The position numbers and the translations under genes are program-made. DNA of 34,762 bases, from assembly GCA_021811805.1 (NCBI GenBank), contig JAKAQA010000001.1, positions 64,533-99,294 on the forward strand, in the 5' to 3' direction. Every line of letters begins with the position of its first letter. Within the stretch, counting starts at the first letter, position 1. Source of the stretch: a bacterium. Its GTDB lineage: Bacteria; SZUA-79; Acidulodesulfobacterales; Acidulodesulfobacteraceae. The notes under the pieces were generated by a model, which was not told the DNA's origin, did not search any database, and saw only the letters and a list, made by a program, of their open reading frames with translations. Shown here in pieces: positions 14,002 through 34,762 of the stretch.

Positions 14002-15417
14002 ATGGATAATTTGGCTTTATTTCTGGCGCGGTTCCAGTTTGGAATGACTGCCTTTTTTCATTTTCTTTACCCTCCCTTGACGATAGGTCTGGCAACTCTT
14101 CTTGTTATAACCGAAGGAGTTTACGTTTTTTCTAAAAATCAGGAGTATTTAAGAATTACCCGTTTTTTTGCAAAATTATTCGCTATTAACTTTGTCGTAG
14201 GCGTTGCAACCGGAATCGTCATGGAGTTTCAGTTCGGAACGAACTGGTCGCAGTATTCTTCTTACGTCGGCGCAATATTCGGAGCGCCGCTTGCCATCGA
14301 AGGGCTTTTCGCTTTTTTTATGGAATCTATTTTCGTAGGCGTTATGCTTTTGGGTTGGAACAGGCTTTCGGCTAAAGCGCACTGGGTATCTACGATATTC
14401 GTAGCCCTCGGTTCGACTTTATCGGCCGTATGGATTTTAGTCGCAAATTCATGGATGCAAAGTCCGACAGGGTATAAAATCGGTTCTAACGGAATACCCA
14501 AAATGACTAATTTCCGGCATGTCGTATTTAATCCGTATTTTCCGTCGGAATTTATTCACGTAATAGCCGCCGCATGGGAATATTCGGCTTTCTTTATGGC
14601 TGGAGTAGCGGCATGGTTTTTAATTAAAAACAATAAAGATATGATAATGAGAAAGGCATTAAAAGTAGCCGTTATATCGGGCGTAATTGTTGCCTGCCTT
14701 CAAATCGTCTTAGGCGATATAAGCGCAAAGGAAGTCGTTAAATACCAGCCTACCAAGCTTGCCATGATGGAAGCCCAGTGGCATTCCCAGAGATATGCTC
14801 CAGAGACCCTTTTTGCGATACCTAATAATCAAACAGAGTCTAACGGACCGCAAATAGGGATTCCGGGTATGTTAAGCATGCTGGCTTATATGAATCCTGC
14901 GGCCAAGGTTATGGGATTTAATAAATCTATAAGCTATATTAACCATAAGTATAATTTGAAATTGACGGCGGCAATGTTCCCTCCCGTTTCGATAGTTTTC
15001 TGGTCGTTTCATATTATGATGTATTTCGGATTTTATTTTGCGCTGGTTATGCTTATCGCAATATATCTTTTATTTAAGGGTAAATTATACGATAGTTCGA
15101 AAATGCTTAAGGTTTTCTGGTTCTCCGCTTTTTTGCCTTTAATAGCCATAGAGTTCGGATGGTTTACCACTGAGATAGGAAGGCAGCCTTTTACGGTTTA
15201 CGGTCTCTTAACTACCGTAAAATCCGTTTCGCCTAATGTCAGCGCATTAGACGTAGGGTTATCTACCTTAATGTTTACTTTGATTTATATAACGTTGGCA
15301 TCGTTTGCGATTTTCCTGTTTAAAAAAGAATTAAAAGAAAGAGCGGAAGGCAAAGACGAACTTGCCGGCGAGTCCGCCCCGTCAGCCGCTTCAAATAATA
15401 AGGAGGCGTTATCATGA
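14002..15417 (+). CDS. cydA: Cytochrome bd-type oxidase subunit I
   Basis: LARFQFGMTAFFHFLYPPLTIGLA, FAINFVVGVATGIVMEFQFGTNW, TTEIGRQPF motifs. Confidence 0.95.
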   Translation: MDNLALFLARFQFGMTAFFHFLYPPLTIGLATLLVITEGVYVFSKNQEYLRITRFFAKLFAINFVVGVATGIVMEFQFGTNWSQYSSYVGAIFGAPLAIEGLFAFFMESIFVGVMLLGWNRLSAKAHWVSTIFVALGSTLSAVWILVANSWMQSPTGYKIGSNGIPKMTNFRHVVFNPYFPSEFIHVIAAAWEYSAFFMAGVAAWFLIKNNKDMIMRKALKVAVISGVIVACLQIVLGDISAKEVVKYQPTKLAMMEAQWHSQRYAPETLFAIPNNQTESNGPQIGIPGMLSMLAYMNPAAKVMGFNKSISYINHKYNLKLTAAMFPPVSIVFWSFHIMMYFGFYFALVMLIAIYLLFKGKLYDSSKMLKVFWFSAFLPLIAIEFGWFTTEIGRQPFTVYGLLTTVKSVSPNVSALDVGLSTLMFTLIYITLASFAIFLFKKELKERAEGKDELAGESAPSAASNNKEALS

Positions 15418-16430
15418 ACTTAAATATATTGTGGTTTATTATTGTAGCGGTTCTTATTTTTGGCTGGTCGGTTATGGACGGTTTCGATTACGGGGTAGGA
15501 GGATTGTTAAATTTTATAGCTAAAAACGACAAAGAAAAAAGATACGTTATGAATGCCATAGGGCCGGTCTGGGAAGGGAACCAGGTCTGGCTGATACTTG
15601 GAGGAGGCGCGGTATTTGCGGCGTTTCCATTAGTTTATGCGTCGATTTTCAGCGGATTTTATCTTGCAATGATGTTAGTCGTCTGGCTCATAATATTCAG
15701 GGCGGTATCTTTCGAGTTCAGAAGCAAAGTCGAAAGCGCGGGCTGGAGGAATTTTTGGGATGCGGATATTACGGTTACGGGTCTCGGTATTTCTCTTTTG
15801 CTCGGCGTAGCTATTGCAAACGTCTTAATGGGTGTTCCGCTTAACCAAGACCATGTAGATTACCAGTCTCTATTCAGCTTGTTAAATATTGTCGGATTAG
15901 TCGGAGGACTTATATCGCTCTCGATGTTTTTAATGCACGGCTCGGCTTATTTAATTATGAAAACCGAAGGGGATATCCAGCAAAGGGCAAGGGTTTTTGC
16001 AAAACGCTTTGCAATATCATATATAGTGTTTACCCTGCTGTTTTTACTGATTTCTCCGATATTTGCGCCTAGGCTTCTAAGTAACGGCTTCGGCATTATA
16101 GGGGACATCATTCCGGTTATAATGCTTATCGGCGGGATAGGCGTTATTTTAACGGCGGGGTCTTCAAGCGACATTAAACCGTTTGCCTATTCTATGGTAG
16201 GCATTCTGGGAGCGGTTGCAAGTCTTGGCGTCGGGATATTTCCAGATATAGTTCCTTCGTCGATTAACCCGGAGTACAGTTTAAATATATATAATTCCGC
16301 TTCCAATCATTTAACGCTTTTGGTTATGCTGTTAGCGACGGTTATAGGTTTGCCATTAGTTTTAATATATGCTTTTTATGCGTATAAAAAGTTTGGATTA
16401 AAGGTAAAAATGGACGACAGCAGTTATTAA
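15414..16430 (+). CDS. cydB: Cytochrome bd-type oxidase subunit II
   Basis: MDGFDYGVGGLLNF, GPVWEGNQVWLILGGGAVFAAFPLVYA, ATGA overlap with cydA. Confidence 0.95.
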   Translation: MNLNILWFIIVAVLIFGWSVMDGFDYGVGGLLNFIAKNDKEKRYVMNAIGPVWEGNQVWLILGGGAVFAAFPLVYASIFSGFYLAMMLVVWLIIFRAVSFEFRSKVESAGWRNFWDADITVTGLGISLLLGVAIANVLMGVPLNQDHVDYQSLFSLLNIVGLVGGLISLSMFLMHGSAYLIMKTEGDIQQRARVFAKRFAISYIVFTLLFLLISPIFAPRLLSNGFGIIGDIIPVIMLIGGIGVILTAGSSSDIKPFAYSMVGILGAVASLGVGIFPDIVPSSINPEYSLNIYNSASNHLTLLVMLLATVIGLPLVLIYAFYAYKKFGLKVKMDDSSY

Positions 16431-16537
16431 TTTATTTCTCGGTTTTATTTAGACCTTTTAATTTTTATAGGGCATTTTTTGCCGGATAATATATAATAAA
16501 ATAGAAGACTAATTTTATCTTAATTTGAGGCGTTTAT

Positions 16538-16990
16538 ATGAATATTTCGAGAGCCAGCGATTACGCTATACGGGGACTGGTATATATGGCAAAAAAGCCT
16601 GCGGGTACGGTATGTTTCGTAAAAGATATAGCTAAAAACACGAATTCGCCGGCTTCTTTTATGTCTAAGATATTTCAAACGCTTGCAAAAAGCGGCATAG
16701 TTCATTCCTTCATCGGAACTAAAGGCGGATTTACGTTTAGTATTCAACCTGAAAATATTACCATAAAAATGGTCGTCGAAATTATAGACGGACCTATCGT
16801 TCTAAACAGATGCGTAGTTAATAAATCCTCCTGCCAGAACGCGGACAATTGCGACGTGCATTTTATGTGGGTAGATATTCAAAAAGTACTGACAAAAGCC
16901 CTAAGTTCTTATTCTATCGCCGATTTTTCCGGTTTGGAAACCCGCCGCAAGGAATTTGAAAAATGGGCAGATTTTTTATTTCGCACCTGA
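16538..16990 (+). CDS. Rrf2-family transcriptional regulator, probably Fe-S type (NsrR/IscR-like)
   Basis: SRASDYAIRGLVYMAKKP and KSGIVHSFIGTKGGF (winged helix); C-x6-C-x5-C cluster NRCVVNKSSCQNADNC. Confidence 0.85.
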   Translation: MNISRASDYAIRGLVYMAKKPAGTVCFVKDIAKNTNSPASFMSKIFQTLAKSGIVHSFIGTKGGFTFSIQPENITIKMVVEIIDGPIVLNRCVVNKSSCQNADNCDVHFMWVDIQKVLTKALSSYSIADFSGLETRRKEFEKWADFLFRT

Positions 16991-17008
16991 TTTAGCAAAT
17001 AGTGCTTA

Positions 17009-17701
17009 TTAAATTTTTTTAAAAAGAATATTATTTTCCATGTGAACGTGAATCATTATATCGTCCGAAATATTCTTCAGCAGTTTATATGTATGCTTAT
17101 AAGAAGCGCAGGCGTCTTGCGGAACCAAATAATCCGAACTTAAAAACAGCATTTCTTTCAAAATATGCCCTACGTATTCATGGCTATATAACGCATCTTC
17201 TATTTCTTTTTTTATGTTTCCGGTTTTTCCGGTTTTTATATCGGTTAGGAGCCCTTCTTCCTCTTTGTCTAAATGAAGAATCATAGCCTGCGACATTTTA
17301 GTAAAAAGCTCCCTTATTTTAAGGAGTTCCGGGTGCTTATTTCCGTGAACGTTCGCAATTTTTTCGACGTAATCCGAAGCCTCCGGAATATGAACCCTTA
17401 AAAACGTATGGTGTATATTAACTATATAGTCTATTAAAAAATCAACATCCCAATCATTTGCTTTTTTACTTAACGAATAGTTATCATCGTTTCCCGCCGC
17501 AGCCGAAGGGCTGTTTAATTCATCCGCTATAAGCAGTTGGTCTATCCCGGATTCCTCGCATACATCTTTCAACGTCTTTGAGCCGCCGCAGCAAAAATCC
17601 ACCCCGTATTTTTTAAATACCCCGATTTTTTCCGGATTTTCCGATGCAATTTCGCCGATGCTCTTTAAGAGCAAAGCATCTTTATCATTCATATTATCCA
17701 C
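17009..17701 (-). CDS. Iron-sulfur cluster repair di-iron protein (RIC; ScdA/YtfE family)
   Basis: N-terminal FKKYGVDFCCGG and His/Glu-rich hemerythrin-like helices (NIHHTFLRVHIP, HLDKEEEGLL, HEYVG, HVHMENNILF). Confidence 0.9.
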   Translation of the reverse strand: MDNMNDKDALLLKSIGEIASENPEKIGVFKKYGVDFCCGGSKTLKDVCEESGIDQLLIADELNSPSAAAGNDDNYSLSKKANDWDVDFLIDYIVNIHHTFLRVHIPEASDYVEKIANVHGNKHPELLKIRELFTKMSQAMILHLDKEEEGLLTDIKTGKTGNIKKEIEDALYSHEYVGHILKEMLFLSSDYLVPQDACASYKHTYKLLKNISDDIMIHVHMENNILFKKI

Positions 17702-17703
17702 CC

Positions 17704-17949
17704 CTATTTTTTTGTAATTTTAACGGCCCACTTAACCGGTCCGTTTTCTATATATTCCCATCCGAAAGCGTTCCCGTTTTCCGCGGTAAGCTGATAATAC
17801 AATGGCTTGGGGTCGTGGTCGTTTTCTATTATAAGACTTTTTCCGCTTTCAAGTTCTCCTAATATTTTAAATATCGCAGAATGTTTATATTTTGGTTCTA
17901 TAGCCGTCACGTCCAGAGTTATCGAATCTTTATCCCTTTTTGTTTTCAT
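17704..17949 (-). CDS. DUF2249 domain protein
   Basis: LDVTAIEPKYKHSAIFKILGELESGKSLIIENDHDPKPLYYQL. ORF track starts at 17979 but the codon at 17949 follows an AGGAG RBS. Confidence 0.8.
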   Translation of the reverse strand: MKTKRDKDSITLDVTAIEPKYKHSAIFKILGELESGKSLIIENDHDPKPLYYQLTAENGNAFGWEYIENGPVKWAVKITKK

Positions 17950-18025
17950 TTTTCTCTCCTTAAATTTTCTGTTATTCATTTTTTACTTACAATTTTATTA
18001 TGTTAAATTTTAAACCTTTAATATA

Positions 18026-18037
18026 TGATTTTTATCA
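18026..18037. promoter_or_regulatory. Candidate FNR/DNR-family operator half-site pair 1
   Basis: TGATTTTTATCA (TGAT-N4-ATCA). Confidence 0.5.
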
Positions 18038-18072
18038 CAATTAATAAAATAATTTTATAAAAAGTAAAAATG

Positions 18073-18084
18073 TGACAAAAATCA
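18073..18084. promoter_or_regulatory. Candidate FNR/DNR-family operator half-site pair 2
   Basis: TGACAAAAATCA; the reverse complement (TTATGATTTTTGTCACA) matches site 1 context (ATATGATTTTTATCACA), so the two sites are inverted copies. Confidence 0.45.
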
Positions 18085-18170
18085 TAACGTTTATTTTTTA
18101 ATTTTTTTATAATTTAATAAACTTGAGACAATTTGAATTTATAACGGAGTTTTATTTAAATAATATTATT

Positions 18171-18626
18171 ATGATTATGCCTAAAATCAGCAAGAAATTT
18201 ATGACAATATGGGTGCCCGCTATTGCAGGATTGATTGTTATCCTTACGCTATCTTTTATAGAATTATATTATTCCTTAAAAGTATCCGACGGGGTCGGAT
18301 TTAATTCTAAAACGGTTAACGCTCCGGCAGGAAAAAAAATATTTTATAAACTGGGATGCGTCAGATGCCATAATATAAGAGCCTTGAATATTAAGGGCGG
18401 ACATGTCGGCCCCGACCTTTCCGGTGCGTATTCCGATACGAAAAAAGTTTACAAGGAAAACGTAAACGCTTTTTTGAAAAATCCCGCCGGAACTATGTAT
18501 TTTGTATTGTTGTTCAATCATTTAAGCAAAGAAGACAGAAAAATCATAACGGCGGAATTAAAAAAAGCCCAGAATATTCAAGATAAAATGAAAAATAAAA
18601 AAACAAACGATAATAAAAGGGGATGA
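18171..18626 (+). CDS. Membrane-anchored mono-heme cytochrome c (NorC-like position)
   Basis: One N-terminal TM segment then LGCVRCHNIRALNIKGGHVGPDLSG (CxxCH). Start codon uncertain (track uses 18123). Confidence 0.8.
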   Translation: MIMPKISKKFMTIWVPAIAGLIVILTLSFIELYYSLKVSDGVGFNSKTVNAPAGKKIFYKLGCVRCHNIRALNIKGGHVGPDLSGAYSDTKKVYKENVNAFLKNPAGTMYFVLLFNHLSKEDRKIITAELKKAQNIQDKMKNKKTNDNKRG

Positions 18627-18688
18627 AAATATTTAAAGGAAATTTAATTTATTTTAATTAACTGTAATAAATGAAAAGAGGAGAGTGT

Positions 18689-20968
18689 ATGGAAAAAAGC
18701 ATTTATTATGACGAAAAAGCGGTAAACAAATTTTTAAAAATTACGTTATCGCTTACGATTATATTCCTTGTCGTTATATTGGTTTACGGAACGTTCAAAG
18801 TATATTACGGCGCGCCGCCTATCCCGTCGCAGGTAATAACCCAAAAAGGCAAGGCCGTTTTTACCGGAAAAGATATTGTTGCCGGTAAGGCAAGGTTTCA
18901 GGAATTCGACCTTATGGATTACGGCTCCATTTACGGCAACGGCGCATATTTCGGACCTGACTTTACCGACCAGTATATTCACAGGGAGGTTAAGTACTAT
19001 AGGGATTTTGAGGCGCAGAAGCTCTATAAAAAACCTTATGCTCAAATCTCGCCGAGAGATCAAGTTTATATAAAATCTCTCGTAATATCTAAAATAAAGA
19101 AAAACAGATTTTCTCAGACGGGCAGACTTTTGACTTATACGCCCGGCGAGATATATGCTTTGGGTAAGATTCAAAAAAGAATCGAAAATCTTTACACAAA
19201 AGGCGACCGGAATCTCGGGATAGGAAAAAATCTGGTGCCTTCTAAGCAGGATATAAAAAGGATAGTGGAATTTTATTCGTGGGCGGCGTGGAGCGCCGAG
19301 ACGTTAAGGCCTGGTGTTAACCATACATATACGAATAACTGGCCTTACAGTAGAGGCGCAGGTAATACTCCGCCGGTGTATCTTTATACGTGGACTTTTG
19401 CATCTCTGGCGACTTTTATCGCCCTTGCGGGTCTTGTCATCTGGTTTTTCCTTAATTATATTTCTCCCGGCTGGCAGGAAGCTCCGGCATTGCTCGAAAA
19501 CTGGAAACCGATGGTGGATTTGGATAATTTTAAAATTACCCATTCGATGAAAAAATCCGCCAAATTCTTTTTTTTAGGCGTTTTTCTGCTCGGCTTGCAG
19601 ATTATAGCGGGTATGCTTCTGGCCCATTATTATGCGGAAAGAGCATCGTTCTTCGGAATTCATACCCTTACCGCTTTGCCGTTTAATATCGTTAAGTCGT
19701 GGCATATTCAGCTTGCGATTTTATTCATCGCTTCGACATGGCTCGGCGCGGGGATATTCGTTTCTAAATATATAGGCGGCGGGAAAGAAGCAAAATGGCA
19801 GTCGTTTTTTATCGATTTTCTATGGTGGGCATTATTAATAGACGGAGTTGCGGCTCTTGTAGGAATGTATCTCGGAGCCAAAGGCTATTTTCATAACGGA
19901 TTATGGTTTTTCCTCGGCAATCAGGGACTTGAATATTTGCAGTTGGGAAGGCTTAACCAGATTATCGTATTTGTGGGCTTACTGCTGTGGGTCGTAATAC
20001 TTTACAGGGCATTGAAGCCGCATTTTATAAAAAATACCGATAAATGGAGCGTCGAGAGGCTGTTTTTAATCAGTGCGGCTACTATAGGCATAATGTATAT
20101 ATTCGGGATGTTTCCGCTTGCTTGGGTCCTCAAAAACTGGACGATTACGGATTTCTGGAGATGGTGGGTCGTTCATCTATGGGTCGAAGGAACTTTCGAA
20201 TTCTTTGCCGTCGCGGTTATAGGCTATTTTTTTCTTTCGCAGGGTCTCGTAAAAAGAACGACTATAGAAAATACCCTGCTTCTCGAAATAATCCTGATAT
20301 TTTTAGGAGGCATTATCGGAACGGGGCATCATTTTTACTTCATAGGAGACGCGTCTATCTGGATCGCGCTCGGTTCTATGTTCTCGTTCTTAGAGGTTAT
20401 TCCCTTACTTCTTTTAACTATGCAGGCTGTTTACGAGAAAAATATCCTGATAAAGGCGGGCAAAAAATTTCCGCAGGATTTATCGTTTAAATATTTAGAG
20501 GCTTCCACGTTTTGGAACTTTATAGGAGCGGGCGTTTTCGGCGCATTAATCAATACTCCGTTAATGAACTATTACGAACACGGTCAGTATTTAACGATAA
20601 ACCATGGACATACGGCTTTGTTCGGCGTATTCGGTCTTCTGGGCATCGCCTTGTCCTATTATGTATTAAGAATGATAGTCGAACCTTCCAAATGGACGGA
20701 AGGAGCGGGAAGAGTAGCTCTTTGGTGCTTTAACGTGGGTATGATTCTATGGGTTATTCTTAATTTCCTGCCGGAAGGCTTTTTGCAGTTTGCGGCTTCG
20801 ATTAAACACGGCTACTGGTATTCGAGAAGCATATATTTTTACGACAAGACCGACCTGTGGCTATGGTTAAGAGTTCCCGGAGATATAGTTTTCAGCATAG
20901 GCGTTCTGGTTCTTTTCATAGATATAACAAAAAAACTTTTACAGGTTAAAAAATCGGCAGAAGAATAA
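18689..20968 (+). CDS. norB: qNOR-type nitric oxide reductase (single-subunit NorB with N-terminal extension)
   Basis: GKARFQEFDLMDYGSIYGNGAYFGPDFT, KSWHIQLAILFIASTWLGAG, VVHLWVEGTFE, GTGHHFYFIG, NHGHTALFGVFG. Start at 18689 has an AGGAGAG RBS. Confidence 0.92.
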   Translation: MEKSIYYDEKAVNKFLKITLSLTIIFLVVILVYGTFKVYYGAPPIPSQVITQKGKAVFTGKDIVAGKARFQEFDLMDYGSIYGNGAYFGPDFTDQYIHREVKYYRDFEAQKLYKKPYAQISPRDQVYIKSLVISKIKKNRFSQTGRLLTYTPGEIYALGKIQKRIENLYTKGDRNLGIGKNLVPSKQDIKRIVEFYSWAAWSAETLRPGVNHTYTNNWPYSRGAGNTPPVYLYTWTFASLATFIALAGLVIWFFLNYISPGWQEAPALLENWKPMVDLDNFKITHSMKKSAKFFFLGVFLLGLQIIAGMLLAHYYAERASFFGIHTLTALPFNIVKSWHIQLAILFIASTWLGAGIFVSKYIGGGKEAKWQSFFIDFLWWALLIDGVAALVGMYLGAKGYFHNGLWFFLGNQGLEYLQLGRLNQIIVFVGLLLWVVILYRALKPHFIKNTDKWSVERLFLISAATIGIMYIFGMFPLAWVLKNWTITDFWRWWVVHLWVEGTFEFFAVAVIGYFFLSQGLVKRTTIENTLLLEIILIFLGGIIGTGHHFYFIGDASIWIALGSMFSFLEVIPLLLLTMQAVYEKNILIKAGKKFPQDLSFKYLEASTFWNFIGAGVFGALINTPLMNYYEHGQYLTINHGHTALFGVFGLLGIALSYYVLRMIVEPSKWTEGAGRVALWCFNVGMILWVILNFLPEGFLQFAASIKHGYWYSRSIYFYDKTDLWLWLRVPGDIVFSIGVLVLFIDITKKLLQVKKSAEE

Positions 20969-22801: not shown

Positions 22802-24466
22802 ATGAACAAAATTAGCAAGACAAAAAGGACGATGCGGCTGAGTTCGCTGCCGGCTTTTGTTTTTGCCTTAGCCGCGGCGCTGGCTTTAGTCTTTGCGTTT
22901 AGCGGGGCAGGAACGGCTTATGCATCCGGAGCTGCCCTTTACGAAAACCCCAACACGGGCGAGATATTTTTAACGCCCGGGCCGGGAAGGGTAAAAGTAG
23001 GACAGAGCGTCGTAAACCAGCTGTTAAAGCCGAACGCAAAAAAGACGACCCTGCAGATTAATAATTTAAAAGCAACGGAAAAGAAGCTGGAGGCTTCGCT
23101 AAAAACAGTTAAGGGCGAAACCCTTCCTGCTTGGACGAAACATATCACCTTAGGTACCTTGGTTTATATGGGTTACGGGTATTATACCCAGACAGGTTTT
23201 GCTCCCGCGTTACAGCTTCAGGAAAATCCGGCGGGTCCGGGACACAACGGTTATAACGCTTTCAACGTGAACAGGGCGTATTTAATATTCTTATATCATC
23301 AGGACAATTGGTTTTTAAAGCTCACGCCGAACATTAATAAGTCGAATAATTATACGGGCGTGCCGACAAATTCCGGCACTGGTTCCGGTTGGTGGAATAC
23401 GGGACAAGGGGGATGGGTTTCTTCTTCCGGCACTACTTTCGGCAACGAATATTTCAGACTTAAATATGCATTTCTACAGTTTAACCATGTTTACGATGCA
23501 AACGGCTTAACCGTAAATCTTAAAGCAGGTCAGTTTCCGACGCCTATGGTTGCATGGGAAGACGGTTTATTAGGATACCATGTTGCGGAAAGAACCCCGT
23601 GGGGTTTTCTCGGCGTAACTTCTACCCAGGCTGGTCTCGGTGTATCCGGTAAATTCAGGTCGAACGGAAAAATTTACATGGCTTATAATGCAGGGTTTTT
23701 CGACAATGCAACCTTTCATCAGGGTGAAAATGTTGACCAGAAATCGCCTCAGGCAAGGGTTTCTTTTTATCCCATGGGAGCAGATTCCAACTTGGACGGT
23801 CTAGGTATAAGCGGATATTATGCATGGTCTGCCCAAACCAATCAATTTAACGGTTACGGTAATGTAGAAAATAATTTCCCGACTGCAAGAACTTCGGCAA
23901 TACTCGATTATAAAACTCCTCAGGGGTTAATCGCCTTACAGTTCGATTACGGTTTAAACGTTACAAGCGGGGGTTTTGCAAGCGGCGCAGGTTCTATAAG
24001 CCAGGATGCCGGAAGCTGGTGCGGATTAGAATCGGTTGCAAATCCTGTATATGCTTGCAGTTATGCGGGTGCGGCATATCCGTTTAATGTCAATGGAAGC
24101 GGACCAGATTCTTTGTATATACTTCAACAGCATAATACAGAACACGGTTATGACGCGTTTGGTTATTACAATATTCCTAACAGCAAATTTGGCGCATTTG
24201 GACTTTATCAGAGATTTTATTATTCGACTCCGTCTTTGCAGACAAATTTTACCGAGGGCAACCCGTTTGATTTCCAGAGGGTGGTTTTAGGTATAGCTTA
24301 TCATCTTAACAGCCATATAACATTGACGGTTGACGACCAGAACTATCAGTTCCTTTATGCGAAGGACTATAGGAATTTATCTTCCACGTCGGCTGGATAT
24401 ATAAATTACGGCCAGTGGATGGGACAGACCAACGCCTATTTCCTTCAGGCAAGGATTGCATTCTAA
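22802..24466 (+). CDS. Outer-membrane beta-barrel porin-like protein
   Basis: Signal peptide ending AYASG, Gly/aromatic-rich alternating strands, C-terminal ...YFLQARIAF. Confidence 0.75.
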   Translation: MNKISKTKRTMRLSSLPAFVFALAAALALVFAFSGAGTAYASGAALYENPNTGEIFLTPGPGRVKVGQSVVNQLLKPNAKKTTLQINNLKATEKKLEASLKTVKGETLPAWTKHITLGTLVYMGYGYYTQTGFAPALQLQENPAGPGHNGYNAFNVNRAYLIFLYHQDNWFLKLTPNINKSNNYTGVPTNSGTGSGWWNTGQGGWVSSSGTTFGNEYFRLKYAFLQFNHVYDANGLTVNLKAGQFPTPMVAWEDGLLGYHVAERTPWGFLGVTSTQAGLGVSGKFRSNGKIYMAYNAGFFDNATFHQGENVDQKSPQARVSFYPMGADSNLDGLGISGYYAWSAQTNQFNGYGNVENNFPTARTSAILDYKTPQGLIALQFDYGLNVTSGGFASGAGSISQDAGSWCGLESVANPVYACSYAGAAYPFNVNGSGPDSLYILQQHNTEHGYDAFGYYNIPNSKFGAFGLYQRFYYSTPSLQTNFTEGNPFDFQRVVLGIAYHLNSHITLTVDDQNYQFLYAKDYRNLSSTSAGYINYGQWMGQTNAYFLQARIAF

Positions 24467-27660: not shown

Positions 27661-28581
27661 ATGGTTAACGATAATTTTAATAAAGATAACGGGCTTAATT
27701 TCGGGGTCAATACCGATTCGTTTTTCGGCATCGGGTTCGGACTTTTGGGCGATAACAATCTCGACCGCTTACAAACCTCATTCAACGATTTTTTTAGTCT
27801 TTTAAATTCGTATAAGATAGGAAATATCGAGATAAATACCGAGATAGAACAGTTAAATCCGGGTTCTTTGCAAAAATTAATTATTCCTTTAATCAGTTCT
27901 TTTTCTTCAAAATCGTCTATCCCGCTTTCGGTCTCGGTCCATCTTCCGTATCTTCAGCTTAATCCGGCAAGCCCTTTAGAAGAATACAGGCGTATTTCGG
28001 TTGACGCGGTTATAAGGGTAATAAACGCCTGCCGCGGATTGGGCGTTAAAAAATTCGTTATTCATCTGACTTCCGAATTTGAAGATTCTATCTTATTTTT
28101 TCCTATCGAAGAAAAAGCAAAAAGGACGTTGATAGATATTGCAGTGAATCAGGCAAAGAAAAGTATGTCGGATATACTAAAGGAAACTAAACTGCCGCCA
28201 TCTGTTTTCGCGTTAGAAAACCTCGAGGTTTTCCCGTTCGATTATTTATACCCCATAGTCGAAGAATTCGGCATATCGGTCTGTTTCGATATGGGTCACT
28301 GGGGGTTAAACGGTTTTATGCCTGAAAAATTTCTCGAAAAATTTAACCTTAACCGCATAGGCGAGATGCATATTCAGGATATGACGGAAAAAAGAAGCGA
28401 CTTAAGAACGACCGTAAGAAACGAACATAGACCTTTAGGAACCGGCATTTTAAAACCGGACGAATTTTTTAACTCTCTGGTCGAGAATAGGCAATTTTCA
28501 GGGTCTTTGATAATAGAAAACAGGTCTAAAGAAGATTTAATTTCTTCCTTAGATTACTTAAAATCCGGTAATTTTATATAA
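27661..28581 (+). CDS. Sugar phosphate isomerase/epimerase-like TIM-barrel protein
   Basis: SVSVHLPYLQLNPASP, FALENLEVFPFDYLYPIVEEFGISVCFDMGHWGLNG, GEMHIQDM, PLGTGILKPDEFF. Confidence 0.75.
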   Translation: MVNDNFNKDNGLNFGVNTDSFFGIGFGLLGDNNLDRLQTSFNDFFSLLNSYKIGNIEINTEIEQLNPGSLQKLIIPLISSFSSKSSIPLSVSVHLPYLQLNPASPLEEYRRISVDAVIRVINACRGLGVKKFVIHLTSEFEDSILFFPIEEKAKRTLIDIAVNQAKKSMSDILKETKLPPSVFALENLEVFPFDYLYPIVEEFGISVCFDMGHWGLNGFMPEKFLEKFNLNRIGEMHIQDMTEKRSDLRTTVRNEHRPLGTGILKPDEFFNSLVENRQFSGSLIIENRSKEDLISSLDYLKSGNFI

Positions 28582-29860: not shown

Positions 29861-29888
29861 TTGACTTAATTTTTATCAGATATATAAT
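29861..29888 (+). promoter_or_regulatory. Putative sigma70-type promoter of the kdp leader
   Basis: TTGACT (29861-29866), 16-nt spacer, TATAAT (29883-29888). Confidence 0.6.
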
Positions 29889-29920
29889 TGTAATAAATTA
29901 TAGCATTATCCGAATAAATC

Positions 29921-30062
29921 GTTCTTTGAAAATTAAAGCTTAATTCCCTTATATATAAGGGAAGCGGAGGAACCAAAATTTTGGGGCGAATATCTTTGAT
30001 AGAGGAGCACTCTTTATCCTTAGCCCGTCAGCTAACTTCGTAAGCTATTAAAGAGCGCCGAA
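29921..30062 (+). promoter_or_regulatory. c-di-AMP riboswitch (ydaO/yuaA type)
   Basis: AAAGCTTAATTCCCTTATATATAAGGGAAGCGGAGGAACCAAAATTTTGGGGCGAATATC...TTAGCCCGTCAGCTAACTTCGTAAGCTATTAAAGAG matches the ydaO core (GGGGRACC-CAAAATTTGGGGYGAAT-...-CCCGTCAGCTAACYTCGTAAGC). Precise ends are approximate. Confidence 0.93.
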
Positions 30063-30114
30063 AGTATAGCTAATATATATATCCGCATATCGATAATATT
30101 TTTATTTATTCTTT

Positions 30115-30151
30115 AATAGCCGAAGGTTTTGAAACCTCCGGCTATTTTTTT
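30115..30151 (+). terminator. Intrinsic terminator of the kdp riboswitch expression platform
   Basis: AATAGCCGAAGGTTTTGAAACCTCCGGCTATTTTTTT. Confidence 0.9.
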
Positions 30152-30207
30152 GCAAAAAATGCGCAACATAAACATTTTAATTTAATAAAAACGGAGGCGG
30201 GTAGTTT

Positions 30208-30294
30208 ATGATAGAAAATATTATTCTTCTTATAGTTTCTATAATGGTATTAGTATATTTGTTTTATGTGTTGATATATCCGGATAAATTTTGA
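30208..30294 (+). CDS. kdpF: KdpF, small membrane subunit of the Kdp K+ ATPase
   Basis: MIENIILLIVSIMVLVYLFYVLIYPDKF (28 aa): one TM ending PDKF, RBS GGAGG, upstream of kdpA. Not in the ORF track. Confidence 0.85.
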   Translation: MIENIILLIVSIMVLVYLFYVLIYPDKF

Positions 30295-30348
30295 ACATAT
30301 ATAAATTTAGCGTGAATTGAAATTTAAAGGAGTGGGGAGGGGCTATAA

Positions 30349-30435
30349 ATGATAGTATTTTTAGCAGCTTTTGCCGGCATAGCTATAATGTATGCCTTAT
30401 TATGGTTTTTTACGGATTTTATAGATAAGATTTAA
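30349..30435 (+). CDS. 28-aa single-TM micro-protein between kdpF and kdpA
   Basis: MIVFLAAFAGIAIMYALLWFFTDFIDKI with RBS AAAGGAGTGGGGAGGGG; same strand, inside the kdp operon. Not in the ORF track. Confidence 0.65.
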   Translation: MIVFLAAFAGIAIMYALLWFFTDFIDKI

Positions 30436-30468
30436 TTTAAATTTAAACATAAAAAGAGGTGTCGAATA

Positions 30469-32196
30469 ATGACTTACACGGGAGTTTTGCAGATTTTAAT
30501 AACGCTTGCCGTTATGGTTATAGCCGCAGTTCCGTTAAGTAAATATCTTGCGCATGTTTTTAAATGCGAACATACATTTTTAGACGGGATTATAAATCCG
30601 GTGGAAAGTTGGACTTTAAAGTTTCTGAAAGTTAACGGAAATGAAGAGATGGACTGGGTTAAATATTTAAAGACGGGGCTTATCGTTAATTTCTTAATGC
30701 TGTCGATAGTTTATTTCATATTGAGGTTTCAAAACTTTTTTCCGTTCAACCAGATGCGCTATCCGGGCATTCCTTGGGCACTTGATTTTAACACGGCGAT
30801 AAGTTTTATAACCAATACGAACTGGCAAAATTACGGCGGAGAGGAGGTTTTATCCAATTTTTCCCAGATGGCGCTTGTTTTTCTACAGTTCACTTCGGCT
30901 GCCACGGGACTTGTTTTTGCCGTAGCTTTTATCCGCGGGCTTATAAGGCGCGAAGCAAAATATGTGGGTAATTTTTACGCAGATTTTATAAAGGCTGTTT
31001 ACAGGCTTTTTTTTCCTTTAGCCGTTATATTTGCGGTTATTATGCTGTGGCAGGGATCGCCGCAAAGCATCTTTACCATGCAGAAAAACGTCGTGAATAT
31101 GACGGGAACTAAACAGACTCTTTCCGTAGGACCCGTAGCTTCTATGGTATCTATCGAAAATATTGGGACTAACGGAGGAGGTTTTTACAACGCAAATGCC
31201 GCCCAGCCTTACGAAAATCCTAACCCCTTTACTAACGCCTTAATTATATTTATGATGGGGACGATTCCTATAGCGCTTTTTTTAATGTACGGAATAATGA
31301 TAGGGAATAAAAAGCATGCATGGACTTTATTTGCGGTCGCTATGACGCTCCTCGTAGTCTGCCTTGCAACGGTTTATTCTCAGGAGGCGCACGGCAATCC
31401 GTTCCTTGCAAAGTTAGGAGCAAATATCCGTGTTTCTAAAAATAATCCGGGCGGCAATATGGAAGGAAAGCAGGAACATATCGGAATTGCCCAGACCTCT
31501 TTATTTGCAGTCGCTACTACGGCGTTTACCACCGGCAACGTCGATTCCGCCCACGACAGTTTTATGCCTCTTTCAGGCATGGTTCTAATCGCCGAAATGA
31601 TGTTAAACCTTATATTCGGCGGTAAAGGAGTGGGGCTTTTAAATATGCTCGCAATGGTAATAATAGCCGTGTTCATAGCCGGACTTATGGTAGGACGGAC
31701 GCCTGAATTTCTTGGGAAAAAAATAGAGGCTAAGGAAGTGAAACTTGCAACGCTTGCAATGTTTGCCCATGCGTTTATTATTCTTATCCCTTTTGCGATA
31801 GCTTTAGCTTTACCGGCGGGGTTGGCGGGTATATTGAATCCCGGTCCGCACGGATTAAGCGAGATTTTATACGCCTATACCTCGACGACGGCAAACAACG
31901 GGTCTGCGTTTGCCGGTCTTAACGGCAATACGCTTTTTTATAATATTTCGCTCGGGCTTACTATATTTTTCGGCAGATATATTCCTATAATTTGCCAGGT
32001 TGCAATAGCGGGTTCATTAATCAAAAAGAAAAGCATACCGGAATCGGCGGGAACGTTTCCGGCGCACGGCATTTTATTTTATACGGTCGTGATGGGAACT
32101 ATACTGCTTGTCGGAGCGCTAACGTTCTTTCCGGCGCTGGCGCTTGGACCTATTGCGGAACATTTCGCAATGGTAAAAGGGCATCTGTTTTATTAA
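30469..32196 (+). CDS. kdpA: Potassium-transporting ATPase subunit A
   Basis: TNTNWQNYGGE, IGTNGGGFYNANAAQPYENPNPFTN, TTGNVDSAHDSFMPL, TSTTANNGSAFAGL selectivity-filter segments. Confidence 0.97.
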   Translation: MTYTGVLQILITLAVMVIAAVPLSKYLAHVFKCEHTFLDGIINPVESWTLKFLKVNGNEEMDWVKYLKTGLIVNFLMLSIVYFILRFQNFFPFNQMRYPGIPWALDFNTAISFITNTNWQNYGGEEVLSNFSQMALVFLQFTSAATGLVFAVAFIRGLIRREAKYVGNFYADFIKAVYRLFFPLAVIFAVIMLWQGSPQSIFTMQKNVVNMTGTKQTLSVGPVASMVSIENIGTNGGGFYNANAAQPYENPNPFTNALIIFMMGTIPIALFLMYGIMIGNKKHAWTLFAVAMTLLVVCLATVYSQEAHGNPFLAKLGANIRVSKNNPGGNMEGKQEHIGIAQTSLFAVATTAFTTGNVDSAHDSFMPLSGMVLIAEMMLNLIFGGKGVGLLNMLAMVIIAVFIAGLMVGRTPEFLGKKIEAKEVKLATLAMFAHAFIILIPFAIALALPAGLAGILNPGPHGLSEILYAYTSTTANNGSAFAGLNGNTLFYNISLGLTIFFGRYIPIICQVAIAGSLIKKKSIPESAGTFPAHGILFYTVVMGTILLVGALTFFPALALGPIAEHFAMVKGHLFY

Positions 32197-32216
32197 TTTA
32201 AAATAATTTAAAGAGG

Positions 32217-32846
32217 ATGTTTATTGTGGGAAAAGAATTTATAAGAATGATAAAATTAACGGTTTTATTATATATTATATGCTCTATAGGCTATACTTTT
32301 CTTATATGGGGCATAGGAAAAATAGCCTTTCCCTTTCAGGCGGGCGGAAGCATCGTTTATAAAAATTCAAAGCCGGTCGGTTCATTTTTGATAGGCGAAA
32401 AATTTACTTCTCCGTATATATTTAACGGCAGACCGTCGTATGCCGGAAACGGTTATAACGGAATGGAATCAGGCGCTTCAAATTACGCTCCCGTCAACGG
32501 AAAGTATATAAACCATGAAAAAAAACTTATAAATAAATTTTTAAAGGAAAATCCGGCCGTTAAAAAAGGCGGTGTGCCGGTCGATATAATAACCGGCTCC
32601 GGCTCGGGTTTGGGACCTTATATTTCTATAGCGGCGGCGTTAGACCAGATACCGAGGATATCGTCGCTTACCGGAATATCTAAAACTATACTTCATAGGC
32701 TTGTTAAAAACAATATATCTTATAGGCAATTAGGCATATTTGGAACTCCCGGGGTAAACACGATGAAATTAAATTTAAAACTTTCTTTACTTCTTAAAAA
32801 AAGCGATTATAAGTTATATAAACGTATTTTCAAGGGACTGGCTTAA
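32217..32846 (+). CDS. kdpC: Potassium-transporting ATPase subunit C (start codon uncertain, 32217 or 32247)
   Basis: GSFLIGEKFTSPYIFNGRPS, ASNYAPVNGK, PVDIITGSGSGLGPYISIAAA, RQLGIFGTPGVNTMKLNL. Confidence 0.93.
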   Translation: MFIVGKEFIRMIKLTVLLYIICSIGYTFLIWGIGKIAFPFQAGGSIVYKNSKPVGSFLIGEKFTSPYIFNGRPSYAGNGYNGMESGASNYAPVNGKYINHEKKLINKFLKENPAVKKGGVPVDIITGSGSGLGPYISIAAALDQIPRISSLTGISKTILHRLVKNNISYRQLGIFGTPGVNTMKLNLKLSLLLKKSDYKLYKRIFKGLA

Positions 32847-32898
32847 GCCGATTAATTAATATTTGTTTAATTTTTAAATAAAAGGGATAAGAAAAATT

Positions 32899-34762
32899 AT
32901 GTCCAGAAAATCATATTATGTTTCTGCGTTTAGCAAAGATATAATGTTATCCGCAATAAAGGATTCTTTTAAAAAGCTTAATCCGAAAATAATGATTAAA
33001 AATCCGGTTATGTTTGTCGTCGAGATAGGTTCCGTTATTACCACGGCAATATTTATCAAAGACCTTTTTCTGCATGATTTTAAATTTATCGCCTTTGTTC
33101 TTCAAATAACGTTATGGCTATGGTTTACCGTTCTGTTCGCCAATTTTGCCGAAAGCATTTCCGAAGGAAGAGGCAAAGCGCAGGCGGACAGCCTGAGAAG
33201 AACAAAGACCGAGGTAATAGCAAGGCTGTTTAAAGAAGACGGAAAGGAGGAAAAAATAAAAACCTTCCTCTTGAGAAAAGGGGATGTAGTTATTGCCGAA
33301 TCGGGCGATACTATACCCGCCGACGGAGAAATAATAGAAGGAATCGCTTCCGTAGATGAATCCGCCATTACCGGAGAATCCGCTCCCGTAATAAGGGAAA
33401 GCGGCGGCGATAGAAGCGCGGTTACCGGCGGTACGAAAGTCTTATCGGATAAAATTATAATCAGAGTAACGTCGAACCCGGGAGAGAATTTTATAGATAA
33501 GATGATAGCTCTCGTCGAAGGAGCATCAAGACGGAAGACGCCGAACGAAATAGCGCTTAATATTTTACTTGTAATGCTGACGGCCCTTTTTTTAGCCGTC
33601 GTTATTACTTTAGAACCTATGGCCGGTTATTTTCACGGATACATTTCTCCAGTAATTTTAGTCGCCCTTCTTGTGTGCCTCATACCTACGACTATAGGCG
33701 CTCTGCTTTCCGCCATAGGTATTTCCGGTATGGACAGGCTTGTCAAACATAACGTAATTGCCATGTCCGGAAAAGCCGTAGAAGCGGCAGGCGACGTCAA
33801 CACCCTCTTGCTTGATAAAACAGGAACTATAACATTCGGAAACAGGATGGCCGTTTCTTTTATTCCGCCCGAGGGTTCGGACATTAACGAGTTAGCCGAT
33901 TATGCACAGCTTTCGTCTTTAAGCGACGAAACGCCTGAAGGAAGGTCTATTGTAACTCTGGCAAAGCAGTACGGCTTCAGGGGAAGGCATATAGACGAAA
34001 AAAATATAGAGTTTATTCCCTTTTCGGCATTTACCAGAATGAGCGGAGTTAACCTTTTAGATAAGAGTTTGCAAATAAGGAAAGGAGCGGTAGATGCGGT
34101 TATAAAATTCGTCGAGCAAAATAACGGCACAGTTGCTGATAAAACCGTAAAAATAGCGGAGGAAATTTCTAAAAAAGGCGGGACGCCTCTTGCCGTTGCG
34201 GTAAATGACCGCATGCTAGGCATTATACATTTAAAAGACGTCGTAAAAGGCGGAATTAAGGAGCGGATTAATAGTTTAAGAAAGATAGGCATTAAAACCG
34301 TCATGATAACTGGCGACAATCCTTTGACGGCAAAAGCGATTGCAAGCGAAGCCGGAGTTGACGATTTTGTAGCGGAAGCTACTCCGGAAACCAAAATGGC
34401 GATTATAAAAAAAGAACAATCGCTTGGCAAGCTAGTAGCGATGACCGGGGACGGAACTAACGATGCGCCTGCTTTAGCTCAGGCTGATGTCGGCGTCGCT
34501 ATGAACACAGGCACTATGGCGGCAAAAGAAGCGGGGAATATGATAGACCTAGATTCAAATCCTACTAAACTGATAGAAATCGTCGAGATAGGCAAGCAAC
34601 TTCTTATAACCAGAGGGTCACTTACCACATTTTCCATAGCAAACGACATAGCAAAATATTTTGCCATAATACCGGCTATGTTTGCGCCTATTATTCCATG
34701 GCTTAGGCCTTTAAACGTTATGGGGTTGTCTTCGCCGGAGTCGGCTATACTTTCGGCGGTAA
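32899..34762 (+). CDS. kdpB: Potassium-transporting ATPase subunit B (3' truncated by the window)
   Basis: Open frame from ATG 32899 ([16 protein letters not shown]...) to the window end; [47 protein letters not shown]. Missing from the ORF track because no stop is inside the window. Confidence 0.97.

What the first reader, a model, noticed from the sequence alone, without database searches (positions are those of the whole stretch)
29861..30294. c-di-AMP riboswitch with an OFF-type terminator platform controlling kdp, with explicit antiterminator complementarity
Seen: a full ydaO/yuaA-like aptamer (CCCGTCAGCTAACTTCGTAAGC and TTTGGGGCGAAT cores) sits between a TTGACT-N16-TATAAT promoter and kdpF. 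It is followed by a strong intrinsic terminator (30115-30151). The 3' strand of the aptamer closing region, GCTATTAAAGA, is perfectly complementary over 11 nt to TCTTTAATAGC, which overlaps the 5' arm of the terminator. The same 3' strand can also pair with the 5' side of the aptamer (TCTTT / AGCTTA around 29922-29942). These two pairings are mutually exclusive. Established: ydaO-class RNAs bind c-di-AMP and repress K+ uptake genes in Firmicutes. Inference: the same logic operates here in what looks like a Gram-negative genome, so kdp would be shut off by c-di-AMP rather than by KdpDE alone.
Basis: partly seen in the sequence, partly recalled or inferred. Interest (0 to 1): 0.75.

Follow-up and report, generated by a model that had tools for sequence, protein, structure and literature searches.

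The report
c-di-AMP riboswitch with boxA controlling kdp
The RNA leader of a potassium-pump operon in an uncultured acid-mine bacterium, probably Gram-negative, carries a genuine c-di-AMP-sensing riboswitch with a terminator, preceded in every fully assembled relative by a boxA, the site that ribosomal RNA operons use to keep RNA polymerase going; this pairing was not found in the papers searched and can be tested.

Summary
A c-di-AMP riboswitch aptamer (RF00379, 82.7 bits, E 5.5e-18) lies between a TTGACT-N16-TATAAT promoter and kdpF, followed by an intrinsic terminator. The 11-nt antiterminator complement is exact; at least 10 nt of it is kept in 18/18 leaders of the phylum across spacers of about 55-400 nt. 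The genome encodes a CdaA cyclase and a PgpH-type phosphodiesterase domain.

Corrections: TCTTT at 29922 is part of GTTCTTTGAAAATTAAA, which matches the boxA of this phylum's own rRNA leaders and spacers (0 of 4.2 million random positions score as well). It occurs in 17/17 full riboswitch leaders and in none of 3 kdp leaders lacking the riboswitch. The tail AAAGAG more likely forms the known ydaO pseudoknot with CUCUUU (30010-30015). KdpDE is not there: only a short KdpD without sensor or kinase parts.

In a sister genus the same aptamer carries 165-205-nt insertions in one peripheral stem and escapes Rfam. c-di-AMP control of kdp by termination is known in Bacillus thuringiensis; a published survey called it restricted to Bacillales. 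New here: the phylum, the boxA partner, the giant-stem variant. Nus-factor function is inferred. No ligand or termination assay was possible.

The parts
29861..29888 (+). sigma-70-type promoter TTGACT-N16-TATAAT
   Evidence: Read in sequence; similar promoter 44-106 nt upstream of boxA in nine leaders checked
29921..29937 (+). boxA-like element GTTCTTTGAAAATTAAA (putative NusB/S10 site)
   Evidence: Best site in the window for a profile built only from rRNA boxA of this phylum: 25.5 bits, runner-up 14.9, 0 of 4,169,520 random positions as high; present in 17/17 full riboswitch leaders; rrn copies
29927..30062 (+). c-di-AMP riboswitch aptamer (RF00379)
   Evidence: cmscan 82.7 bits, E 5.5e-18; covariation
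29937..29940 (+). P1 5' strand AGCU (pairs with 30043-30046)
   Evidence: Rfam alignment, pair counts
29991..30001 (+). peripheral stem (TATC/GATA); expands up to about 207 nt in relatives
   Evidence: 3 of 4 counted pairs changed on both sides
30010..30015 (+). pseudoknot loop CUCUUU, partner of tail AAAGAG 30050-30055
   Evidence: 100% paired in 10 distinct rows but nearly invariant; same topology can be read in the 4QLM construct printed in PMC5393176
30044..30054 (+). antiterminator 5' strand GCUAUUAAAGA (overlaps P1 3' strand and pseudoknot tail)
   Evidence: 11-nt exact complement; 10-11 nt in 18/18 leaders
30110..30120 (+). antiterminator 3' strand UCUUUAAUAGC (overlaps terminator 5' arm)
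30116..30151 (+). intrinsic terminator hairpin and U-tract
30208..30294 (+). kdpF
   Evidence: PF09604 1.6e-8; TIGR02115
30349..30435 (+). orfX, conserved 28-aa membrane-type small ORF between kdpF and kdpA
   Evidence: No Pfam or NCBIfam match; counterpart in the leaders read
30469..32196 (+). kdpA
   Evidence: PF03814 2.9e-214
32217..32846 (+). kdpC
   Evidence: PF02669 9.6e-54
32899..34762 (+). kdpB, cut by contig end
   Evidence: E1-E2 ATPase and hydrolase domains; complete KdpB in the C156 copy

Best explanation
The kdp leader is a transcriptional OFF riboswitch for c-di-AMP with a boxA element in front. RNA polymerase starts about 25 nt upstream of boxA (inferred). The Nus complex probably loads on boxA and keeps polymerase processive on the untranslated leader, perhaps holding the aptamer near the RNA exit channel. 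Without c-di-AMP, the aptamer tail GCUAUUAAAGA pairs with UCUUUAAUAGC as it emerges, blocking the terminator so that kdpFXACB(D) is made. With c-di-AMP, P1 and the pseudoknot hold the tail, the terminator forms and K+ pump synthesis stops. Shown here by sequence: aptamer, terminator, conserved mutually exclusive pairings, boxA match to rRNA, genes for c-di-AMP synthesis and breakdown. Inferred: ligand binding, sign, Nus binding and its role. (Confidence given is for the riboswitch with OFF-type termination control; for a functional boxA I give about 0.6.)
For: RF00379 hit with covariation. Antiterminator complement of at least 10 nt in 18/18 leaders despite spacers of about 55-402 nt. Mean antiterminator pair probability 0.62-1.00 in all 17 nascent transcripts; once the terminator 3' arm is made it is at most 0.38 in 16 and 0.90 in one. 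CdaA (TIGR00159; CdaA_N + DAC); DAC in 19/19 near-complete genomes; 7TMR-HD phosphodiesterase domain in 29/30. boxA: matches in 10/10 rRNA leaders and 8/8 assembled 16S-23S spacers, ahead of two CRISPR arrays, and profile statistics. Precedent: PMC6488665 shows a c-di-AMP riboswitch terminating kdpFABC in B. thuringiensis.
Against: No binding or termination data. boxA function is unproved; a Nus complex that also resisted intrinsic termination (suggested in PMC10250234) would defeat the switch unless it acts mainly on Rho, pausing or folding. Three kdp operons of the same phylum lack both elements, so the switch is not essential. P0 (UUCUUU/AAAGAG) and the pseudoknot are almost invariant, so covariation cannot decide between them. 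Leaders from close relatives are not independent.
Confidence: 0.85

Rival explanations
1. Plain c-di-AMP OFF riboswitch; the GTTCTTTGA element is only the 5' strand of an aptamer-extending helix P0 (UUCUUU with AAAGAG), and resembles boxA by chance.
For: P0 pairs are kept in every row and appear in the minimum-energy fold of the whole leader.
Against: Conservation reaches beyond the six pairing bases (G1, G8, A9, A11, A15-A17 invariant) and follows the rRNA boxA letters; the profile match is not reached in 4.2 million random positions; the tail has the known pseudoknot partner.
Confidence: 0.15
2. ON switch or non-termination control: c-di-AMP stabilises the antiterminator or acts on translation.
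For: No experiment excludes it; the balance is close in some leaders (G004 keeps the antiterminator at 0.90 in the full-length fold).
Against: P1 3' strand and pseudoknot tail are contained in the antiterminator strand, so ligand binding should compete with it; the published kdp case is OFF (PMC6488665).
Confidence: 0.06
3. Decayed riboswitch relic no longer used.
For: Several relatives have kdp without it.
Against: About 70 invariant columns, compensatory changes and a conserved terminator across three genera.
Confidence: 0.03

Closest known systems
c-di-AMP riboswitch of kdpFABC in Bacillus thuringiensis (PMC6488665)
   Same: c-di-AMP aptamer, downstream intrinsic terminator, kdpF first gene, KdpD reduced to its N-terminal part
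   Different: Different phylum; boxA precedes the aptamer; gene order F-X-A-C-B-D; giant-stem aptamers in a sister genus. That survey described the arrangement as restricted to Bacillales. Whether Bacillus leaders carry a boxA was not tested
rRNA boxA / Nus antitermination elements (PMC5725501, PMC10250234)
   Same: Sequence of the element and its place near the start of a long untranslated RNA
   Different: Here joined to a metabolite riboswitch and its intrinsic terminator; binding of Nus factors untested
boxA in front of CRISPR arrays (Stringer et al. 2020, as cited in PMC7862264)
   Same: boxA before an untranslated RNA outside rRNA; also seen in this phylum
   Different: There no ligand-controlled terminator is described
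Short c-di-AMP-controlled KdpD of Deinococcus geothermalis (PMC11018627)
   Same: KdpD N-terminal domain plus Usp-like part, no histidine kinase; KdpB keeps the TGES motif
   Different: The S. aureus c-di-AMP motif SXS-X20-FTAXY is not conserved here

Membership tests
c-di-AMP (ydaO/yuaA) riboswitch RF00379 | Covariance-model match above gathering score | tested here: met
   82.7 bits vs 38
c-di-AMP (ydaO/yuaA) riboswitch RF00379 | Conserved helices supported by covariation in relatives | tested here: met
   9 pairs with changes on both sides, 99.1% paired
c-di-AMP (ydaO/yuaA) riboswitch RF00379 | Pseudoknot between terminal loop and 3' tail | tested here: inconclusive
   CUCUUU/AAAGAG 100% pairable but nearly invariant
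c-di-AMP (ydaO/yuaA) riboswitch RF00379 | Binds c-di-AMP | not testable with these tools
   Cyclase and phosphodiesterase genes present; binding needs an assay
OFF-type transcription-terminating platform | Mutually exclusive antiterminator and terminator, antiterminator overlapping the ligand-stabilised helix | tested here: met
rrn-type boxA | Match to boxA of the organism's rRNA operons | tested here: met
   (rRNA operons of relatives in the same family; the window's own bin has no assembled 16S)
rrn-type boxA | Binds NusB/S10 and changes termination | not testable with these tools
   Needs biochemistry; presence of nusB in the genome was not searched
KdpDE two-component control | KdpD with DUF4118 sensor and histidine kinase | tested here: not met
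   0 of 30 genomes with PF13493; KdpD about 385-396 aa
c-di-AMP-binding KdpD Usp domain | SXS-X20-FTAXY motif | tested here: not met
   SSN and (L/F)(Y/F)VLH at these places; only a weak match to 7ji4 (E 0.0015)

The most novel reading that the evidence does not exclude
A composite leader in which an rRNA-type Nus antitermination complex is loaded at boxA first, protects the leader from Rho and tethers the aptamer beside the RNA exit channel, so that a c-di-AMP-controlled antiterminator can form across 50-400 nt. In a stronger form, the ligand-bound tail (AAAGAG) hides boxA itself, so c-di-AMP gates Nus loading.
Probability: 0.35. Interest if true: 0.8.

Novelty: new variant of a known kind. 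Interest (0 to 1): 0.62.

Why it matters
It extends c-di-AMP control of the Kdp pump beyond Bacillota to an acidophilic, probably diderm phylum, where K+ import is proposed to help hold protons out (PMC6776010). It contradicts a published statement that the arrangement is restricted to Bacillales (PMC6488665). If boxA is functional, it joins two control layers studied separately: processive Nus antitermination and ligand-controlled attenuation. It would also suggest why very long untranslated riboswitch leaders survive, and how a tail and a terminator 400 nt apart find each other. The giant-stem aptamers show that Rfam counts of this class can be too low.

Tried and rejected
Paralogy within one genome: the second locus on C156 is 86-87% identical with the same upstream gene, more likely a co-binned related species. 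Transfer from acidophilic Firmicutes: the nearest outside KdpA (about 50%) include Alicyclobacillus-like genomes, but those loci have no RF00379 hit; not pursued with a tree. KdpD as second c-di-AMP receptor: motif not met. Loss of the riboswitch in genus g2: suggested by Rfam, rejected on reading the sequence. Terminator covariation: 8 of 11 pairs never vary, no signal above shuffles, as expected where one arm also serves the antiterminator. A first try at constrained folding failed (constraints not applied); pair probabilities were used instead. Papers on the ydaO crystal structures and on boxA before CRISPR arrays were not held.

Full report
Rfam's c-di-AMP model matches 29927-30062 end to end with 82.7 bits, E 5.5e-18. 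It is followed by an intrinsic terminator and then kdpF, a second 28-aa ORF, kdpA, kdpC and kdpB. The 11-nt complement lies at 30044-30054 and 30110-30120.

The window lies on contig C28 of a 1.6-Mb bin, 84% complete. A second, 86-87% identical kdp locus with its own riboswitch is on C156, probably from a co-binned sister species. The nearest named records are MAGs labelled bacterium or Deltaproteobacteria. The collection holds only 30 genomes for the whole phylum, all in one family. I infer Candidatus Acidulodesulfobacteriota (PMC6776010); this was not tested against a named reference.

Relatives. The core CCCGNCAGCTAACTTCGTAAGC occurs at 18 places in 16 genomes. Twelve are found by Rfam. The other six, all in genus g2, carry the same aptamer, but the stem after GGGGCUA holds about 165-205 nt instead of about 20; its base stays paired and varies in a compensated way. 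Rfam gives such a locus only 16 bits. Structure counts on 11 aptamers: 99.1% of cells paired, 9 pairs changed on both sides against 3.7 shuffled, and sliding the partners destroys it.

Switch. All 18 leaders keep at least 10 nt of the complement GCTATTAAAG/CTTTAATAGC, although the spacer runs from about 55 to 402 nt. In nascent transcripts ending before the terminator 3' arm the antiterminator has mean pair probability 0.62-1.00 in 17/17; once the arm is present it is 0.38 or less in 16/17. This fits a kinetically controlled OFF switch. The tail strand also holds the P1 3' strand and the pseudoknot tail, so ligand binding should compete with the antiterminator (inference).

The 5' element. First read as an aptamer strand, GTTCTTTGA[AC]A starts 16 to about 35 nt before P1 in 17/17 full leaders, with the 17-nt element abutting P1 in most of them. 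One-mismatch matches in G000 lie only at the two kdp leaders. One match in G028 fell between tRNA-Ala and 23S rRNA. All ten assembled 16S leaders carry GGTCTTTGA[AG]AACTAAA and all eight assembled 16S-23S spacers carry G[TC]TCTTTGAAAATTGAA. Two further matches precede CRISPR arrays, one with a Cas12a-type repeat. A profile from rRNA copies alone puts the kdp site first in the window (25.5 bits, runner-up 14.9), with 0 of 4.17 million random positions as high. The three assembled kdp leaders without riboswitch (G010, G022, G028) have no such element. I conclude that it is a boxA-like element; that it binds NusB/S10 is inference.

What boxA might do. Roles reported elsewhere: protection from Rho, RNA folding during rRNA synthesis (PMC5725501), and a proposed tether that holds RNA downstream of boxA near the exit channel until its distant partner emerges (PMC10250234). 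The last has the geometry needed here. A caution: the same paper suggests that such complexes may also resist intrinsic termination, which would undo the switch.

c-di-AMP system and KdpD. CdaA with its transmembrane domain sits next to folP-like and ftsH-like genes. DAC is in 27/30 genomes and 19/19 near-complete ones; 7TM-HD in 29/30. KdpD is short and DUF4118 is absent from all 30. Its Usp-like part weakly matches the S. aureus KdpD structure 7ji4 but lacks the c-di-AMP motif. A post-translational role via KdpB TGES, as in PMC11018627, is possible but untested.

Known against new. A c-di-AMP riboswitch terminating kdp is established in B. thuringiensis; that paper found the arrangement restricted to Bacillales and exclusive with a working KdpDE. 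The exclusivity holds here, the restriction does not. The same paper notes earlier predictions ahead of K+ transporters in other phyla including Proteobacteria, so presence in a Gram-negative lineage alone is modestly new. No paper describing a boxA-riboswitch pairing turned up in the held library; that library is partial.

Noticed in passing
window 30349-30435: A second 28-aa membrane-type small ORF (MIVFLAAFAGIAIMYALLWFFTDFIDKI) between kdpF and kdpA, with counterparts in the other kdp loci read, without Pfam or NCBIfam match; possible extra small Kdp subunit.
   Followed up: partly
window 30208-34762; L129: Unusual gene order kdpF-X-A-C-B-D, kdpC before kdpB.
   Followed up: no
L156 1501-2030 (G018:C228): boxA directly before an array of repeats ending AATTTCTACTGTTGTAGAT (Cas12a-type), period about 63.
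   Followed up: partly
L164 1083-1517 (G004:C6): Another CRISPR-like array (period about 65) with boxA in its leader on the minus strand.
   Followed up: partly
L131 9148-10674 and 705-2021: In genus g2 a BBP2 beta-barrel porin gene lies between kdpB and kdpD and arsB lies upstream of the leader.
   Followed up: no
window 14002-20968: Cytochrome bd subunits, Rrf2 regulator, ScdA-type hemerythrin and a NorB-type nitric oxide reductase side by side, suggesting a nitric oxide/oxygen stress cluster.
   Followed up: no
window 22802-24466: 554-aa ORF without any Pfam match.
   Followed up: no
window 28502-28518: Weaker boxA-like site GGTCTTTGATAATAGAA, 14.9 bits, inside ORF 27661-28581; probably chance.
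   Followed up: no
L110 (G001) between promoter and boxA: Well over 100 nt of AT-rich sequence inserted between promoter and boxA relative to G007, so insertions in g2 leaders hit several places.
   Followed up: no
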